Of a stretch of 64,000 bases of DNA, positions 46,103 through 52,760 are shown one piece after another. Origin of the DNA: Alphaproteobacteria bacterium (lineage in GTDB: Bacteria; Pseudomonadota; Alphaproteobacteria; Reyranellales; Reyranellaceae); the NCBI GenBank assembly GCA_019635875.1, contig JAHBYP010000002.1, positions 992,001 to 1,056,000 on the forward strand, written 5' to 3'. The position numbers and the translations under genes are program-made. The first letter of the stretch is position 1; every line of letters starts with the position of its first letter. The notes below the pieces were generated by a model that made no database searches, had not been told where the DNA came from, and saw only the letters and a program-made list of their open reading frames with translations.

Positions 46103-49100
46103 TCAGGCGGCCGGCGCGCTTTCGATCTCCGCTGCGACCAGCCGGGTCTCGGCCGCCAGCGGCCCGAGCGCGTCCCGGCAGCTGGCCCGGTCGGCCGCCT
46201 TGCCGGCGCTCTCCAGCCGCAAGGCCACATCGGCGATGCGCCGCGCCCCGACCGCCAGGGCGGCGCCCTTCAGCTTGTGGGCGGCGGCCGCGATGCTCGC
46301 GAGATCGCCGCATGCCATCGCCCGTTCGATCTCCTCGTGCACCTCGCGGGCAGTCGTCAGGAAGCTGTCGAACAGGGCGCGGATCGCCACGTGGTCGTCG
46401 CCCATCCAGGCCGACAAGATCGAACGATCGAGGATAGGGGAACCGGCTTCCGTCGTTGCCGTCGCGACAGGCAGGCTGCGTGGCGTCTTGTTCGCCGGCA
46501 GCCAGCGCTGCAGTGTGACGCGCAGGCTATCGAGCGCCACGGGCTTGGCGAGATAGGCGTCCATGCCGGCGGCGCGACAGCGCTCGTCCTCGCCGCGCAT
46601 CGCATTGGCCGTGACGGCGACGATCGGCGTGCGCTGCCGGCTTCCCTCGGCCTCCGCAATGCGCATGCGGGCGGTCATCTCGAAGCCGTCCATGTCGGGC
46701 ATGTGGACGTCGGCGAAGACGATGGCGTAGTCGCCCCGCCGCCAGGCGGCGAGGCCTTCGCGTCCATCGACCGCCGTGTCGGCCTCGACGCCCAGCGCGC
46801 GCAACTGGCCCTGCAGGACGTCGCGATTGACCGGGTGGTCGTCGACCACCAGCACCCGCGCGCTGGCGAGGCCGGTGGGCGAGGGTGCCGGCCCGGCCGA
46901 TGCGTCGCCCGCCGACGGTGCAGAGTGCAGCGAGTCGGCGGGCGCGGCTCTCAGCTCCAGGGTGACGGTGAAAGTCGAGCCCATGCCGGGCCGGCTGTCG
47001 GCCGCGACGTCGCCGCCCATCGCCTGCGCCAGACGGCGCACGATCGACAGGCCCAGGCCGGTGCCACCATAGCGTCGTGTCGTCGAGCTGTCGGCCTGGG
47101 CGAACGGCTGGAACAGACGCGCCATCTGCGCCGGGCTCATGCCGACGCCGGTATCCTCGATGCTCAGCGACACGCGCGTGCGGCCGTCGCCCAGCGGCTC
47201 GGTGCGTGCCTTGACCATGGCGCCGCCGCGCTCGGTGAACTTCAGCGCATTGCCCAGCAGGTTGAACAGGATCTGCCGCACGCGCGTCGGATCGCCGAGC
47301 AGAGAGTCGGCTGAGCCCGGCGCCACCGCGGCGACCAGCGACAGACCCTTGCGCGAGGCCTGCGGGCGGAAGGTCGCCACGGTGCCGTCGACGATGCCCG
47401 ACAGCGAGAACGGCACTTCCTCGAGGTCGAGCGCGCCGGCCTCGATCTTCGAGAAGTCGAGCAGCTCGTCGATGATGCGCAGCAGCGCCGTGGCCGACTC
47501 GCGCATGGTCGCGACGGTGCCGCGCTGCGCCTCGCCCAGGCCCTGCGCCTCCAGCACGTCCATCATGCCCAGCACGCCGTTCATCGGCGTGCGGATCTCG
47601 TGGCTCATGGTGGCGAGGAAGGTCGACTTGGCCTGGTTGGCCGCCTCCGCCTCGGCGCGCGACTTCTCCGCCGAGCCCAGCGCCTTCTCCAGCTCGCGTT
47701 GCCGGCGCCGTTCCTGGGAGACGTCGGTGACCAGCACGACCTTGCGGTCGTCGTCGGCGCCGCGCATCAGCACGCGCGCCCAGCGCTGCGGGGCATAGGA
47801 AATCAGCGCCGGCTCGCCGCGACGAAGCGTGGCGACCTGCTCGGCGACCCAGGTGTCGGCGCGGCCGGGTGGCGCGGCGCCGGCCTTGGCGGCGTGCGCC
47901 GCGCCATCGACCAACGAGGTGCCCGGCGTGATGATCCCGGGCTGATGACCCATGAAGCCGCGATAGGCCTCGTTGCACTGCAGCAGCCGCTCGTCGGCAT
48001 CGAGGAAGGCGATGCCGTCGACCATAGCCTCCATCGCCAGCAACAGGCGCTGGCGCGCCTCGTTGGCCTCGTCGCGCGCCGCCTCGGCGCTCTCGCGTGC
48101 CTCTTCCAGCTCGGTGACGTCGCGATGCATGACGAGGCGACGACCGTCGCGCAGCACCTTGAGCGAGAACTGCAGGCGCTTGTCGCCGCGACGCACCAGG
48201 ATCCAGCCGTCGCTGCCGGTCTCGAACATCCTGCGCCTGACGGCGACGATCTCGGCCTTCTGCTTGTCGTCCAGCGGCCCGAAATCGCCGCGCGCGATCT
48301 GGAAGTCGAGGATCGCCCAGGCGTCGGGCAACTTCTGCAGCATCTCGCGGCTGATGCCGTGCAGCTTGACCAGCGGTTCGTTGACGAAAGCCCAGCGTCC
48401 GTCCGCCTCGTAGAGCAGGGTGGCGTCGGGCATCTCGTCGAGAACGGTCTGCATCGCCTGGCCCGCGGTCTCGGCCGCCTCGCGCGCATTCTGCAGCTCG
48501 GTGACGTCGCGCTGCATGCTGACGCGCCGTCCGTCGGGCAGAACCTTCACCGCGATCTGGATCGAGCGACCTTCCCGCTGAATCAGCTGCCAGTCGGTGC
48601 CGTCGCGGAAGCCGGTCAACCGCCGCTCGATTTCCGCCTCGCGCTCCGTGGCATCGATCGGTCCCCAATCGCCGCGCTCGGCCTGAAACTCGAAGACTTC
48701 GCGCAGGGAAGGCTTGGCATCGAACGTGCTGCGATCGACGTTGTGGAACCGCAGGATCGCGTCGTTGACCAGCACGAAGCGGTCATTGGCATCGACCAGC
48801 GCCACGCCGTCGCTCATCGCATCGACGATCGTCTCGAGCGTCTGCCGGCTGGCCTGGGCCTCGTCGAGGGCGCGGCGCGTCTCGGCCAGCGCGGCCTCGT
48901 GACGTTCTGTAAGCTCGGCGTTGTGCAGCTCGGTGGCGAACTGCAGCCGCGCTCGGCGCTGCTCGCCGCGTGCCATTGCGGCGAGCAGACCCCAGTAGAG
49001 AATGGTCGCCGCCGCCGCGAGCACGATCAGGCCGCGCTCGCCGATCGAGATCAAGCCGGCCGAGAGGCAGACCAGGGTGGCGCCGGCATAGGCGTTGAAC

Positions 49101-49519
49101 ACGGCGCCGTCGAGTGGCCGCGATGGTGCGGCAATCGCCGTGATACAGATGATAAGGCAGATCGCCAGCCGCTCTTCCGGAAAGGGCAGGGTGACCAGCA
49201 AGCCGCCGCCCAGACCATAGGCGATGCCGTTGAACAGCGCGACGACGACCAGCAGCAGGCGCCAACGTTGGATCGACAGGCGCGCGGGATCGCGACGCCA
49301 CGCCTGGCCGAGCACGAAGAAGGCGAGATTGCACGCGGCGTGGAGAACGGCCGGCGCCGCGACCATCCAGAGCGGCGCCGATCCCCAGTAGACCGCGTAG
49401 AGCAGGGGCCACAACGTCAGCGACCAGACGCGGACCGTCAACGGCACCTCGATCAGCCGGCGCACCATCTCGCGGCGCAGCTGCCCCGGGTCCGCCCGCT
49501 CGAGAGTGGTCGTACTCAT
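46103..49519 (-). CDS. Hybrid sensor histidine kinase with PAS domains, receiver and Hpt
   Basis: A 1138-residue inner-membrane phosphorelay protein: about six membrane segments in residues 27-185, three PAS-like regions of which two are near-duplicates (each ending Asp-Val-Thr-Glu-Leu), HisKA with phospho-acceptor His near 639 (Met-Ser-His-Glu-Ile-Arg-Thr-Pro), HATPase, receiver with Asp near 935 (Phe-Ala-Asp-Val-His-Met-Pro-Asp-Met-Asp-Gly) and a C-terminal Hpt with His near 1080 (His-Lys-Leu-Lys-Gly). No output domain, so an external regulator is needed. ATG 49519 has GGGGAGA eight bases upstream; the frame extends far upstream without sense. Divergent from the Asn-Gly repeat gene. Confidence 0.92.
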   Translation of the reverse strand: MSTTTLERADPGQLRREMVRRLIEVPLTVRVWSLTLWPLLYAVYWGSAPLWMVAAPAVLHAACNLAFFVLGQAWRRDPARLSIQRWRLLLVVVALFNGIAYGLGGGLLVTLPFPEERLAICLIICITAIAAPSRPLDGAVFNAYAGATLVCLSAGLISIGERGLIVLAAAATILYWGLLAAMARGEQRRARLQFATELHNAELTERHEAALAETRRALDEAQASRQTLETIVDAMSDGVALVDANDRFVLVNDAILRFHNVDRSTFDAKPSLREVFEFQAERGDWGPIDATEREAEIERRLTGFRDGTDWQLIQREGRSIQIAVKVLPDGRRVSMQRDVTELQNAREAAETAGQAMQTVLDEMPDATLLYEADGRWAFVNEPLVKLHGISREMLQKLPDAWAILDFQIARGDFGPLDDKQKAEIVAVRRRMFETGSDGWILVRRGDKRLQFSLKVLRDGRRLVMHRDVTELEEARESAEAARDEANEARQRLLLAMEAMVDGIAFLDADERLLQCNEAYRGFMGHQPGIITPGTSLVDGAAHAAKAGAAPPGRADTWVAEQVATLRRGEPALISYAPQRWARVLMRGADDDRKVVLVTDVSQERRRQRELEKALGSAEKSRAEAEAANQAKSTFLATMSHEIRTPMNGVLGMMDVLEAQGLGEAQRGTVATMRESATALLRIIDELLDFSKIEAGALDLEEVPFSLSGIVDGTVATFRPQASRKGLSLVAAVAPGSADSLLGDPTRVRQILFNLLGNALKFTERGGAMVKARTEPLGDGRTRVSLSIEDTGVGMSPAQMARLFQPFAQADSSTTRRYGGTGLGLSIVRRLAQAMGGDVAADSRPGMGSTFTVTLELRAAPADSLHSAPSAGDASAGPAPSPTGLASARVLVVDDHPVNRDVLQGQLRALGVEADTAVDGREGLAAWRRGDYAIVFADVHMPDMDGFEMTARMRIAEAEGSRQRTPIVAVTANAMRGEDERCRAAGMDAYLAKPVALDSLRVTLQRWLPANKTPRSLPVATATTEAGSPILDRSILSAWMGDDHVAIRALFDSFLTTAREVHEEIERAMACGDLASIAAAAHKLKGAALAVGARRIADVALRLESAGKAADRASCRDALGPLAAETRLVAAEIESAPAA

Positions 49520-49541
49520 GGACGCATTCTCCCCGGGACGC

Positions 49542-49638
49542 GTATCGCGACCGTATCGTGGCGAGGCATCTCTGTATCGTCTGTATCGCGGCGATACGCA
49601 CGAAACCGCAAACCCTGTCCGTGACATGCCGACGATAC
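49542..49638. promoter_or_regulatory. Cluster of six GTATCG/CGATAC sites in the divergent promoter region
   Basis: GTATCG lies at 49542-49547, 49553-49558, 49574-49579 and 49583-49588; CGATAC lies at 49592-49597 and 49633-49638. The fourth and fifth form the palindrome GTATCG-CGG-CGATAC. The first two are 11 bases apart, one helix turn, as in OmpR-type direct-repeat sites. The same palindrome occurs at 62993-63007. Confidence 0.6.
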
Positions 49639-49720
49639 GGCAGGCCGGCAGCTTGGTGCCATCGCGGGCGGCGCTCTGCCGGCACCGCGGGGACGAAGCC
49701 CCGGACCAAGGAGAACCATC

Positions 49721-50086
49721 ATGTTCAAGGCGATCACTCTGTCCGCCGCGCTGCTGGCATCCGTCGCCATCGCCCCGGCCCGTTCCTCGACCGTCGAGAA
49801 CGGCATGAAGGCCAACGGCTTTCGCTTCAACGGCATCGAGCTGAACGGCTTCCAGTGGAACGGCTTCCGGTGGAACGGCCACCAGTGGAACGGTCACCAG
49901 TGGAACGGCTTCCAGTGGAATGGCCTCCGGTGGAACGGCTACCGGTGGAACGGGCTGCAGCTGAATGGCATGCGGCTCAACGGTCCAGTCTTGCAGACTG
50001 TCCAGCTCAACAACGTACAACTGGGCGAGATCGACCTCGCCGTGCCCGCGCCCCTGCGGTTGGTGGCGATCGAGCTGCCGGAGTGA
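49721..50086 (+). CDS. Exported protein with exact five-residue Asn-Gly repeat (x-x-Trp/Leu/Phe-Asn-Gly)
   Basis: A 121-residue secreted protein. A signal peptide (Met-Phe-Lys-Ala-Ile-Thr, hydrophobic core to about residue 20) precedes a repeat in which Asn-Gly occurs 13 times at exactly five-residue spacing, from Asn27 to Gly88. The residue before Asn is Trp in seven units, otherwise mostly Leu or Phe. A non-repeat tail of about 33 residues ends Ala-Ile-Glu-Leu-Pro-Glu. It is related in spacing to pentapeptide-repeat beta helices but with a Trp-Asn-Gly core that I do not know from a characterised protein. AAGGAG precedes ATG 49721 and a five-base-pair stem-loop (49688-49703) precedes that. 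Divergent from the hybrid kinase. Confidence 0.85.
   Translation: MFKAITLSAALLASVAIAPARSSTVENGMKANGFRFNGIELNGFQWNGFRWNGHQWNGHQWNGFQWNGLRWNGYRWNGLQLNGMRLNGPVLQTVQLNNVQLGEIDLAVPAPLRLVAIELPE
49799..49984 (+). repeat. 15-base coding repeat array
   Basis: The array encodes the Asn-Gly pentapeptide units. The central units share CAGTGGAACGGC with small changes, so copy number could vary by slippage. Unit length 15 bases keeps the frame. Confidence 0.85.
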
Positions 50087-50148: not shown

Positions 50149-50406
50149 ATGACATCGACCGCCCCGCCCCGCCCCGTATGGCGGGGCTATGCCGGTATCG
50201 CCGCCGCCGTGGCGGTCGCGGCCTACGCCGCGCATGTCGGCAGCGCTGCGCTCAAGCGCCTCGTCGACGGAGCGGCGTTGGACTGGAGGGTGTTCGCCCA
50301 ATCCTCGATCGACACCGCCTATCTGATGGTGCTGCCGATCCTGGCGGCGATCCTCGTCGTCGAGGTCTGCGTCCTCGGCTGGCGTGCCAGCCCTAGCGCG
50401 GGCTGA
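50149..50406 (+). CDS. Small membrane protein next to the Asn-Gly repeat gene
   Basis: An 85-residue protein of no family I know. A short Pro/Arg start is followed by a hydrophobic segment (about 15-30), a basic/acidic turn and a second segment (about 55-76) rich in Leu, Ile and Val, ending Trp-Arg-Ala-Ser-Pro-Ser-Ala-Gly. GGGGAGAG lies before ATG 50149, and the frame before it is not protein-like. It sits 62 bases after the repeat protein on the same strand, so the two may be co-expressed; it might anchor or export the repeat protein, but nothing proves it. Confidence 0.7.
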   Translation: MTSTAPPRPVWRGYAGIAAAVAVAAYAAHVGSAALKRLVDGAALDWRVFAQSSIDTAYLMVLPILAAILVVEVCVLGWRASPSAG

Positions 50407-50569: not shown

Positions 50570-51277
50570 ATGGACACACGCCAGCATATCGTGGTGGTTG
50601 AGGACGAGGCGGCGCAGCGGCAGCTGCTCGTCGACTATCTTGGCCGCAACGGCTTTCGCGTCAGCGGCGCCGACGGCGGGGCCGCCTTTCGCAGGCTGAT
50701 CGAGCGCGACCCGCCGGTGCTGGCGCTGCTCGATGTCGGCCTGCCGGGCGAGGACGGTTTCGTCCTGGCGCGCTGGCTGCGCGAGAAGAACGGCCGCATC
50801 TGCATCATCATGGTCACCGCCGCCAGCGACACGGTCGACCGCATCGTCGGCCTGGAGACCGGCGCCGATGACTACATCCCCAAGCCGTTCGATCCGCGCG
50901 AGCTGCTGGCACGCGTGAAGAGCGTGCTGCGCCGCGCCAGCGGCGCGGCCGTGCCGTTGTCGGGGCGGCGCGTGCGCATGGGGCGGCGCATCCTCGACCT
51001 GGAGCGCCGCGTGCTGATCGATCCCGACGGCAGCGAGGAGACGCTGGCGTCGAGTGAATACGATCTGCTGCGGCTCTTCGCCGAGAATCCCAACCGGCCG
51101 CTGGCGCGCGACTGGCTGCTGGAAAGCGCCGCGCATCGCGAGATGGAGGCCTTCGACCGCGCCATCGACCTGCGCATCACCCGCATCCGCCGCAAGATCG
51201 AGAAGGACCCGGCGCACCCCGACGCCATCCGCACCGTGCGCGGCGTCGGCTACATGTTCGTGCCGGTGAAGGATTGA
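50570..51277 (+). CDS. OmpR-family response regulator
   Basis: A 235-residue regulator. Receiver: acidic pair Glu11-Asp12, phospho-acceptor Asp55 (Leu-Leu-Asp-Val-Gly-Leu-Pro-Gly), Thr83 and Lys105. A winged-helix output domain (about 130-230) ends with Val-Arg-Gly-Val-Gly-Tyr-Met-Phe. It has no kinase of its own beside it; the nearest is the hybrid kinase 1 kb away across the Asn-Gly repeat genes. It may bind the GTATCG sites in that promoter region, which is inference. No strong Shine-Dalgarno precedes ATG 50570. Convergent with the MocR gene, family D palindrome between. Confidence 0.93.
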   Translation: MDTRQHIVVVEDEAAQRQLLVDYLGRNGFRVSGADGGAAFRRLIERDPPVLALLDVGLPGEDGFVLARWLREKNGRICIIMVTAASDTVDRIVGLETGADDYIPKPFDPRELLARVKSVLRRASGAAVPLSGRRVRMGRRILDLERRVLIDPDGSEETLASSEYDLLRLFAENPNRPLARDWLLESAAHREMEAFDRAIDLRITRIRRKIEKDPAHPDAIRTVRGVGYMFVPVKD

Positions 51278-51280
51278 TCT

Positions 51281-51339
51281 GGGAGCGCCGGCGTCTCGCC
51301 GGCCCTGCTCATGATGCCGGCGAGACGCCGGCGCTCCCA
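51281..51339. repeat. Palindromic repeat, family D copy 1
   Basis: GGGAGCGCCGGCGTCTCGCC with a near-perfect inverted arm ending at 51339. It lies between convergent genes and supplies the last ten or so codons and the stop of the MocR gene, so it arrived into or beside that coding end. Confidence 0.88.
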
Positions 51340-52760
51340 AGGACCCTGGCCATGCCCGCGACGGCGCGTCGGATGGCGCGCTCGTCGAAAGCGGCGACGC
51401 CCAGCACCAGCCCCGGATCGCCGCCCGGCCGTATCCTGTAGCGCGACAGCGCCGCGCATTCGATGTCGGCCGCGGCCAGCCGCCGCGCGACGGCGACATC
51501 GGAGGATCGGCCCGGCAGCCAGCCCACGATGTCGAGGCCGGCCGCCGCGTCGTCGACAACCAGGCGTTTTCCCAGCAGGCGGTGGCTCTCCGTGCGCAAC
51601 AGCGCGTGGCGCGTGGCGTAGATCTCGCGCAGGCGACGGACGTGGCGGTTGAAGTGGCCACCCTCGATGAAACGCGCCAGGGTCGCCTGCTCGAGGCTGG
51701 GCGCGAAACGCAGGCTGAGCGACAGCAGCGCGCGCACGGGCTCGAGCAGGCGGGGTGGCAGCACGACGTAGCCCAGCCGCAGCGCCGGCAGCAGCGTCTT
51801 GCTGAACGAGCCGACATGTATCACCCGGCCGTCGGTATCGAGGCCCTGCAGCGCTGCGATCGGCCGCGCGCCGTAGCGGAACTCGCCGTCGTAGTCGTCC
51901 TCGACGATCCAGGCGCCGGCGTGCCGCGCACGCTCGATCAGCGCGCGGCGGCGCGGCAGCGACAGCGTCATGCCCAGCGGGCTCTGGTGCGCCGGCGTCA
52001 CGCTGATCAGGCGCGGAGGCGGGGCGTCGGCAGCGGGCAGCGCGATGCCATCGCCGTCCACGGCCATCGGCACGATCGCGGCACCGGCGGCGAGCCAGCC
52101 GGCGCGGCTGCCGGGATAGCCGGGGTCCTCGACCCAGACGGTGTCGCCGCGTTCCAGCGTGGCGCGCGCAATCAGGTCGAAGCCGGCCTGCGCGCCCGGC
52201 ACGATGGCGACGTGATCGGCATCGCAGCGCACGCCTCGCGTGGTCGCGAGATAGGCCGCCAGGGCGGCGCGCAGCGGCCGATAGCCGAGCGGCTCGGCAT
52301 CGCCCAGCAACATGTCGTCGGCGCTGCGCCACAAGCCGCCCGCCAGTCGCGCCCAGGTGCGACGGGGAAACAGCGAGACGTCAGGCAGGTTGGCGCGAAA
52401 CGGTCGAGGCGCGGTTCGCTCGGCCTGCGGGAACGGCACGGACAACGCCGGCCGCAGCGGCGGGGGCTTGCCGCGCGAGCGCGCCGGGGGCGGTGTTGCC
52501 TCGAGCGCGCTGCGCACGTAGGTGCCGGCACCGTGGCGACTCTCGATGAAGCCGTCGGCGCGCAGTTGCTCGAAGACCGCGACCACGGTCCCGCGCGAGA
52601 CCTCCTCGCGAAGCGCCAGCTCGCGGGAGGCCGGCAGACGGACACCGGCCGACAGGCCGCCGCTGGCGATGGCGGCGCGCAGGGAGCCGTAGAGGCGAGC
52701 GAACTTGGTGCTGGAGTGGTCCAATGATCTTCCACAAAGTGGTCGAACAGGATGAACCAT
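51309..52760 (-). CDS. MocR/PdxR-type transcription factor (GntR helix-turn-helix plus aminotransferase-like domain)
   Basis: A 483-residue regulator. The N-terminal GntR winged helix has Arg-Leu-Pro-Ala-Ser-Arg-Glu-Leu-Ala and Ser-Arg-Gly-Thr-Val-Val-Ala-Val-Phe. The aminotransferase class I-like effector domain has the PLP Lys321 in Gly-Ser-Phe-Ser-Lys-Thr-Leu-Leu-Pro. Such proteins sense PLP or amino compounds and often control a divergent operon, here the NTF2-like/epimerase pair. The C-terminus Gly-Ser-Ala-Gly-Val-Ser-Pro-Ala-Ser is encoded by the family D repeat. ATG 52760 is used; an in-frame TTG at 52724 is possible. Confidence 0.93.
   Translation of the reverse strand: MVHPVRPLCGRSLDHSSTKFARLYGSLRAAIASGGLSAGVRLPASRELALREEVSRGTVVAVFEQLRADGFIESRHGAGTYVRSALEATPPPARSRGKPPPLRPALSVPFPQAERTAPRPFRANLPDVSLFPRRTWARLAGGLWRSADDMLLGDAEPLGYRPLRAALAAYLATTRGVRCDADHVAIVPGAQAGFDLIARATLERGDTVWVEDPGYPGSRAGWLAAGAAIVPMAVDGDGIALPAADAPPPRLISVTPAHQSPLGMTLSLPRRRALIERARHAGAWIVEDDYDGEFRYGARPIAALQGLDTDGRVIHVGSFSKTLLPALRLGYVVLPPRLLEPVRALLSLSLRFAPSLEQATLARFIEGGHFNRHVRRLREIYATRHALLRTESHRLLGKRLVVDDAAAGLDIVGWLPGRSSDVAVARRLAAADIECAALSRYRIRPGGDPGLVLGVAAFDERAIRRAVAGMARVLGSAGVSPAS

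What the first reader, a model, noticed from the sequence alone, without database searches (positions are those of the whole stretch)
49721..50086. Secreted protein built on a 13-fold exact Asn-Gly pentapeptide frame with a Trp-Asn-Gly core
From Asn27 to Gly88, Asn-Gly recurs every five residues without a slip, and seven of the residues before Asn are Trp. A pentapeptide-repeat beta helix normally stacks Leu or Phe; stacked Trp with Asn-Gly turns would make an unusual ladder on an exported small protein. The 15-base DNA unit also allows copy-number change. It is divergent from a hybrid kinase and next to a two-helix membrane protein and a regulator, so it may be the output of a signalling module.
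Basis: partly seen in the sequence, partly recalled or inferred. Interest (0 to 1): 0.72.

Follow-up and report, generated by a model that had tools for sequence, protein, structure and literature searches.

The report
Regulated exported Asn-Gly repeat peptide
A bacterium of the Reyranella family carries a small exported protein built from a repeated five-residue unit; it belongs to an undescribed, fast-changing peptide family that sits inside a conserved sensor-regulator module, shares its control DNA with bacteriocin-like peptides, and almost always occurs with one uncharacterised partner protein (ADYC), although what it does is unknown.

Summary
In detail: ORF 49721-50086 has 13 Asn-Gly at exactly five-residue spacing (best of 100,000 shuffles: 3), seven preceded by Trp. 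It is coding (GC3 0.90) and has homologues. It belongs to an undescribed family: signal peptide, variable N-[G/A] pentapeptide frame, conserved C-terminal [AG]IELP tail. Trp is not conserved. Neither sequence profiles nor AlphaFold2 support a pentapeptide beta helix, though the alignment was shallow.

The signalling-module idea is strongly supported. In many Reyranellaceae the gene lies between a divergent hybrid kinase and an OmpR-type regulator. A conserved leader (CCATCGACGGACGGCATCCCGCC) and tandem direct-repeat operators precede it, and the operator class matches a residue in the regulator's recognition helix. The same leader precedes double-glycine peptides with a C39 exporter, and Pro-rich exported proteins.

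The family co-occurs with an ADYC-domain (PF20032) protein: 20 genomes have both, 1 only ADYC, 2 only NG, 52 neither (Fisher P 6e-15, uncorrected for relatedness). The pair recurs on Rhizobium and Neorhizobium plasmids, where strains differ by one 15-bp unit.

Best reading: a regulated, rapidly evolving exported repeat peptide acting outside the inner membrane with ADYC; molecular activity unknown.

The parts
49721..50086 (+). CDS of exported Asn-Gly pentapeptide-frame protein, 121 aa
   Evidence: homologues
49721..49786 (+). signal peptide (residues 1-22, approximate)
   Evidence: by eye, aligned with MFKTI...APAQA of relatives
49799..49984 (+). 13 in-register NG pentapeptides (residues 27-88)
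50057..50083 (+). conserved C-terminal tail RLVAIELPE (family consensus [AG]IELP)
   Evidence: alignments
49659..49682 (+). diverged copy of the leader motif CCATCGACGGACGGCATCCCGCCG (here CCATCGCGGGCGGCGCTCTGCCGG), probably at the 5' end of the mRNA
   Evidence: own-genome profile hit weak, 15 bits, E 0.17
49592..49607 (+). operator 1: GATAC-gcac-GAAACC half-site pair
   Evidence: anchored comparison of promoters
49621..49640 (+). operator 2: GTGACATGCCGACGATACGG, about three helical turns downstream of operator 1
49572..49588 (-). second GATACAgacGATACA direct repeat, oriented towards the kinase gene
   Evidence: sequence
46103..49519 (-). divergent hybrid histidine kinase (N-terminal hydrophobic segments by eye, PAS x3, HisKA, HATPase, receiver, Hpt)
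   Evidence: Pfam; homologues divergent from NG genes
50149..50406 (+). 85-aa two-helix ORF, probably the truncated N-terminus of a fatty-acid-hydroxylase-family (PF04116) gene that sits next to NG genes elsewhere
50570..51277 (+). OmpR-type response regulator (receiver + Trans_reg_C)
   Evidence: orthologues 75-94% identical

Best explanation
The gene encodes an exported, rapidly evolving repeat peptide that is an output of the adjacent two-component system. Signal: the hybrid kinase (signal unknown) phosphorylates the OmpR-type regulator. Control: the regulator binds two tandem direct-repeat operators upstream of the -10 box and switches on a transcript with a conserved leader (inferred from matched operator and recognition-helix classes). 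Export: Sec moves the peptide across the inner membrane (inferred). Action: outside, the N-[G/A] pentapeptides form an extended, probably unstructured multivalent chain whose unit number and side chains change quickly, while the invariant C-terminal IELP tail is the docking or recognition element for the exported ADYC-domain partner, with which the peptide acts in the envelope or outside the cell. The shared control cassette with microcin-like peptides suggests a bacteriocin-like or signalling role. Shown: the family, the conserved module, the promoter and leader, and the ADYC association. Inferred: regulator binding, export, tail-ADYC contact, biological role.
For: Family with signal peptide, frame and tail in 22 of 75 family genomes, one other family and rhizobial plasmids. 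Regulator orthologues 75-81% identical about 1.1 kb downstream and homologous kinases divergent in many species. Anchored promoters: class GATAC beside window-type regulators (recognition helix IDLRITR), class GCAAC/GAAACC beside regulators with IDIR[VI]LR, class GACAC beside the own genome's second module (IDLRIKR). The leader scan found NG proteins, Pro-rich exported proteins and double-glycine peptides; one double-glycine cluster adjoins kinase, regulator, HlyD and a C39-peptidase ABC exporter. ADYC co-occurrence 20/1/2/52, Fisher 5.8e-15; 23 of 32 ADYC genes lie within 2 kb of an NG gene; ADYC is in none of the four genomes with the leader but no NG protein. Class-wide, ADYC is in 3 of 385 genomes; the only one outside the family, G182, also has the only convincing NG protein outside the family. 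Synonymous exceed non-synonymous differences (19:4; last 25 residues of a tandem pair 10:1).
Against: In the window ADYC is not adjacent; two copies lie elsewhere in the genome. The window's leader copy is diverged and weak. Fisher's test ignores relatedness. No experiment shows regulator binding, export or a tail-ADYC contact. The AlphaFold2 alignment was shallow, so a fold that forms only on binding or in multimers is not excluded. Some NG genes lie beside other regulators (HTH-TPR, winged-helix-TPR, adenylate cyclase) or beside none (L002, L003).
Confidence: 0.55

Rival explanations
1. It is a secreted pentapeptide-repeat beta-helix protein with a Trp/Phe ladder and Asn-Gly turns, working like the envelope protein YjbI.
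For: Exact five-residue period; Gly at a turn-like position; YjbI is a precedent for a secreted pentapeptide-repeat protein in alphaproteobacteria (PMC12864828).
Against: Pfam 13.5 against a 38-bit cut-off; AlphaFold2 pLDDT 44.6 with no secondary structure; unit number falls to 2-5 in several members, too few for a helix; no Cys pairs as described for YjbI.
Confidence: 0.12
2. It is the precursor of a modified peptide (RiPP-like): the repeats are the modified core, the IELP tail is the recognition sequence, and ADYC or a neighbour is the modifying or processing enzyme acting at Asn-Gly.
For: Variable core with conserved tail, near-obligate partner protein, shared control with leader-processed peptides.
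Against: No radical-SAM or other known RiPP maturase was noticed among the called genes of the modules listed, though this was not an exhaustive search; ADYC has no known activity and its predicted fold was unusable.
Confidence: 0.2
3. It is a structural or matrix repeat protein (surface coat or filament former) induced by envelope stress; ADYC and the lipid hydroxylase are other envelope-remodelling outputs.
For: Repetitive exported protein next to FA_hydroxylase-family genes in several loci and encoded beside several kinds of signal-transduction proteins.
Against: Patchy presence, 2-16 units and shared control with C39-exported peptides fit a small peptide better than a scaffold.
Confidence: 0.2

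Closest known systems
Pentapeptide-repeat proteins (PF00805, PF13599), e.g. secreted YjbI
   Same: Five-residue period, exported, alphaproteobacterial precedent
   Different: Conserved N-[G/A] rather than A(D/N)LXX, no profile match over cut-off, no predicted beta helix, no Cys pairs
ADYC-domain proteins (PF20032)
   Same: Almost always encoded in the same genome as the NG protein and usually next to it
   Different: A separate partner protein, not a homologue; function undescribed (no paper found)
Class II microcin-like double-glycine peptides with C39 ABC exporter
   Same: Same leader motif, operator class and two-component module type in sister loci
   Different: NG proteins carry a Sec-type signal peptide, no double-glycine leader and no C39 exporter nearby
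Pentapeptide MXKDX repeat proteins (TIGR02953)
   Same: Small proteins with variable tandem pentapeptides (family description from memory)
   Different: Different unit, no significant match (best E 0.15); IELP tail and ADYC partner not tested there

Membership tests
Pentapeptide-repeat protein (Rfr beta helix) | Score over the Pfam pentapeptide cut-offs | tested here: not met
   PF13599 13.5 against 38 bits
Pentapeptide-repeat protein (Rfr beta helix) | Right-handed quadrilateral beta helix | tested here: inconclusive
   AlphaFold2 pLDDT 44.6, no secondary structure, shallow alignment; argues against but does not exclude
YjbI-type secreted pentapeptide-repeat protein | Two conserved cysteine pairs flanking the helix | tested here: not met
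   No Cys in the window protein; feature from PMC12864828
Class II microcin / double-glycine bacteriocin | Double-glycine leader and C39-peptidase exporter | tested here: not met
   NG members have Sec-type signal peptides; the exporter was seen only in a double-glycine locus
NG/IELP exported peptide family (defined here) | Signal peptide, N-[G/A] at five-residue spacing, C-terminal [AG]IELP tail | tested here: met
NG/IELP exported peptide family (defined here) | ADYC protein in the same genome | tested here: met
   Own genome has two ADYC genes; 20 of 22 NG genomes in the family
Radical-SAM cyclophane RiPP (GrrA/OscA type) | Match to the precursor family and an adjacent radical-SAM maturase | tested here: inconclusive
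   TIGR04260 E 6.6 in one member; no such gene noticed near the loci, not searched exhaustively

The most novel reading that the evidence does not exclude
A new kind of two-partner exported peptide system: a hypervariable N-[G/A] pentapeptide chain with an invariant IELP recognition tail plus a dedicated ADYC protein that binds, modifies or processes it, plugged as exchangeable cargo into a regulator/leader cassette that also drives microcin-like peptides, for competition or communication between bacteria.
Probability: 0.3. Interest if true: 0.82.

Novelty: new variant of a known kind. Interest (0 to 1): 0.6.

Why it matters
It gives an uncharacterised domain (ADYC, PF20032) a first likely functional partner, describes a repeat-peptide family found in no library searched here, and defines a two-component regulon of small exported peptides in a little-studied bacterial family, with operator classes that track a recognition-helix residue and can be tested directly.

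Tried and rejected
Pentapeptide beta helix: not supported by profiles or AlphaFold2. ADYC fold: model too poor (pLDDT 43.8), so no fold search was made; no solved relative by sequence. RNA hairpin in the leader (CGGC-N5-GCCG): one covarying pair in 6 of 33 sequences, but RNAalifold does not find it; treated as unproven. Rfam: only chance microRNA-like hits. Chance explanation: rejected. Antisense extension of the kinase ORF over the gene: rejected by codon-position GC and by kinase homologues that start near 49519. Class-wide NG hits other than G182 are weak (E 1e-6 to 1e-4, several with stop codons) and were not counted. Memory lead not testable here: myxobacterial ADYC proteins with N-terminal LNG repeats (a fusion of the two partners).

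Full report
Observation. The ORF at 49721-50086 is as described: 13 Asn-Gly pairs, every five residues from Asn27 to Gly88, seven preceded by Trp. Shuffling never gave a run above 3. Third-position GC of 0.90 and homologues with the same start, frame and tail show that it is a gene. Export is inferred from the signal peptide in every member, read by eye.

The family. The own genome (G000) has four members: the window gene, L002, L003, and a short one in a second kinase-regulator module...TDNGLGATNGLIGTNGLDSTNGRDSGARHGHILMIELPKE. In the family, 22 of 75 genomes have members; named contigs show that it is Reyranella and relatives. The constant parts are a signal peptide of about 22 residues, N-G (or N-A) every five residues, and a C-terminal [AG]IELP tail. 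The variable parts are the number of units (in-register runs of up to 16, some members with only 2-3), their other residues, and even the period (six in the module-2 paralogue). Trp before Asn recurs in a few members (L009, L010, L022, L048) but is not conserved. No Pfam, NCBIfam or PHROGs family matches over its cut-off.

The neighbourhood. A hybrid kinase divergent from the gene and an OmpR-type regulator about 1 kb downstream are found in many species, the regulator 75-81% identical. The regulator family is in 69 of 75 genomes, NG proteins in only 22, so the cargo comes and goes: the same-genus genome G001 has the kinase (76%) and regulator (94%) back to back, with no peptide and no ADYC. 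Other NG genes lie beside other regulators: HTH-TPR, winged-helix-TPR, adenylate cyclase.

Promoter and leader. Aligned on the leader, the promoters show two half-site pairs about 32 bp apart and a TAnnTT-like -10 box just before the leader. Three operator classes (GATAC, GCAAC/GAAACC, GACAC) go with three regulator groups that differ in the recognition helix (IDLRITR, IDIR[VI]LR, IDLRIKR). This is the strongest evidence that the regulator controls the peptide gene. The window promoter fits the GATAC class; its leader copy is diverged (15 bits; the other two own-genome leaders score 39 and 33 bits). A further GATACA direct repeat faces the kinase gene, which suggests autoregulation.

The regulon. 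The leader motif scan returned three kinds of small exported products: NG proteins, Pro-rich signal-peptide proteins, and double-glycine peptides (for example MIAKIRELNLDDVKAVSGG..., four in tandem). The tandem cluster lies next to kinase, regulator, HlyD and an ABC exporter with a C39 peptidase domain (Pfam E 9e-35), as in class II microcin systems. So the cassette delivers exported peptides of several types.

The partner. A gene of about 255 codons beside many NG genes encodes an ADYC-domain protein (PF20032, E 1e-40). ADYC is in 21 of 75 genomes, 20 of them shared with NG (Fisher 5.8e-15, not corrected for relatedness); 23 of 32 ADYC genes are within 2 kb of an NG gene, and a further one (L206) adjoins a short NG-like peptide missed by the search; none of the four genomes with the leader but without NG has ADYC. 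Class-wide ADYC is rare (3 of 385), and the one genome outside the family that has it also has an NG protein (L033). On Rhizobium and Neorhizobium plasmids the gene after ADYC encodes a signal peptide, an N-A-[IL] pentapeptide array and a VELP tail. Two Rhizobium strains have 8 units and a third has 9, differing by one in-frame 15-bp unit: copy-number change is real.

Structure. AlphaFold2 on the mature protein with 16 rows gave pLDDT 44.6 and no secondary structure, the tail being the best part. With a shallow alignment this is not proof of disorder, but it gives no support to a stacked-Trp beta helix.

The two-helix ORF. It matches only two other places in the family, both just downstream of NG genes in R. 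aquatilis, where it aligns with the N-terminus of FA_hydroxylase-family proteins; similar hydroxylases lie beside NG genes in other species. In the window it is probably a remnant.

Mechanism. Shown: family, conserved module, matched operators, shared leader, ADYC association. Inferred: regulator binding, export, tail-ADYC contact. Unknown: the signal, the target, and whether the peptide is modified or processed. A bacteriocin-like or signalling role is the favoured guess because of the shared regulon; a coat or matrix role remains open.

Noticed in passing
window 50149-50406; L196 4545-5534, L193 4099-5124, L197 1575-2615, L198: The 85-aa two-helix ORF resembles the N-terminus of fatty-acid-hydroxylase-family proteins encoded beside NG genes in other species; in the window it looks like a truncated remnant.
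   Followed up: yes
L271 5899-11948 (same locus as L083): Kinase-regulator module with four double-glycine peptides that share the leader motif, a fifth peptide, HlyD and a C39-peptidase ABC exporter: a microcin-like system in Reyranella.
   Followed up: partly
L077, L085, L090, L106: Pro-rich exported small proteins under the same leader and GCAAC operators, next to class-B regulators.
   Followed up: partly
window 49540-49588: Several GTATCG/CGATAC direct repeats facing the kinase gene, suggesting autoregulation.
   Followed up: no
L274 7526-7972, L196 8210-8638, L275 900-1340, L276 6102-6548: An exported protein of about 145 aa, no Pfam match for the two scanned (L274, L196), just upstream of class-B regulators.
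   Followed up: partly
window 51279-51340: Near-perfect palindrome (CTGGGAGCGCCGGCGTCTCGCCGGC...GCCGGCGAGACGCCGGCGCTCCCA) between the regulator and the next gene; it gives spurious microRNA hits in Rfam. Perhaps a dispersed repeat.
   Followed up: no
G000:C1:548475-549026 (L189 7335-8180, -): A second ADYC gene in the own genome with no NG gene or kinase next to it.
   Followed up: partly
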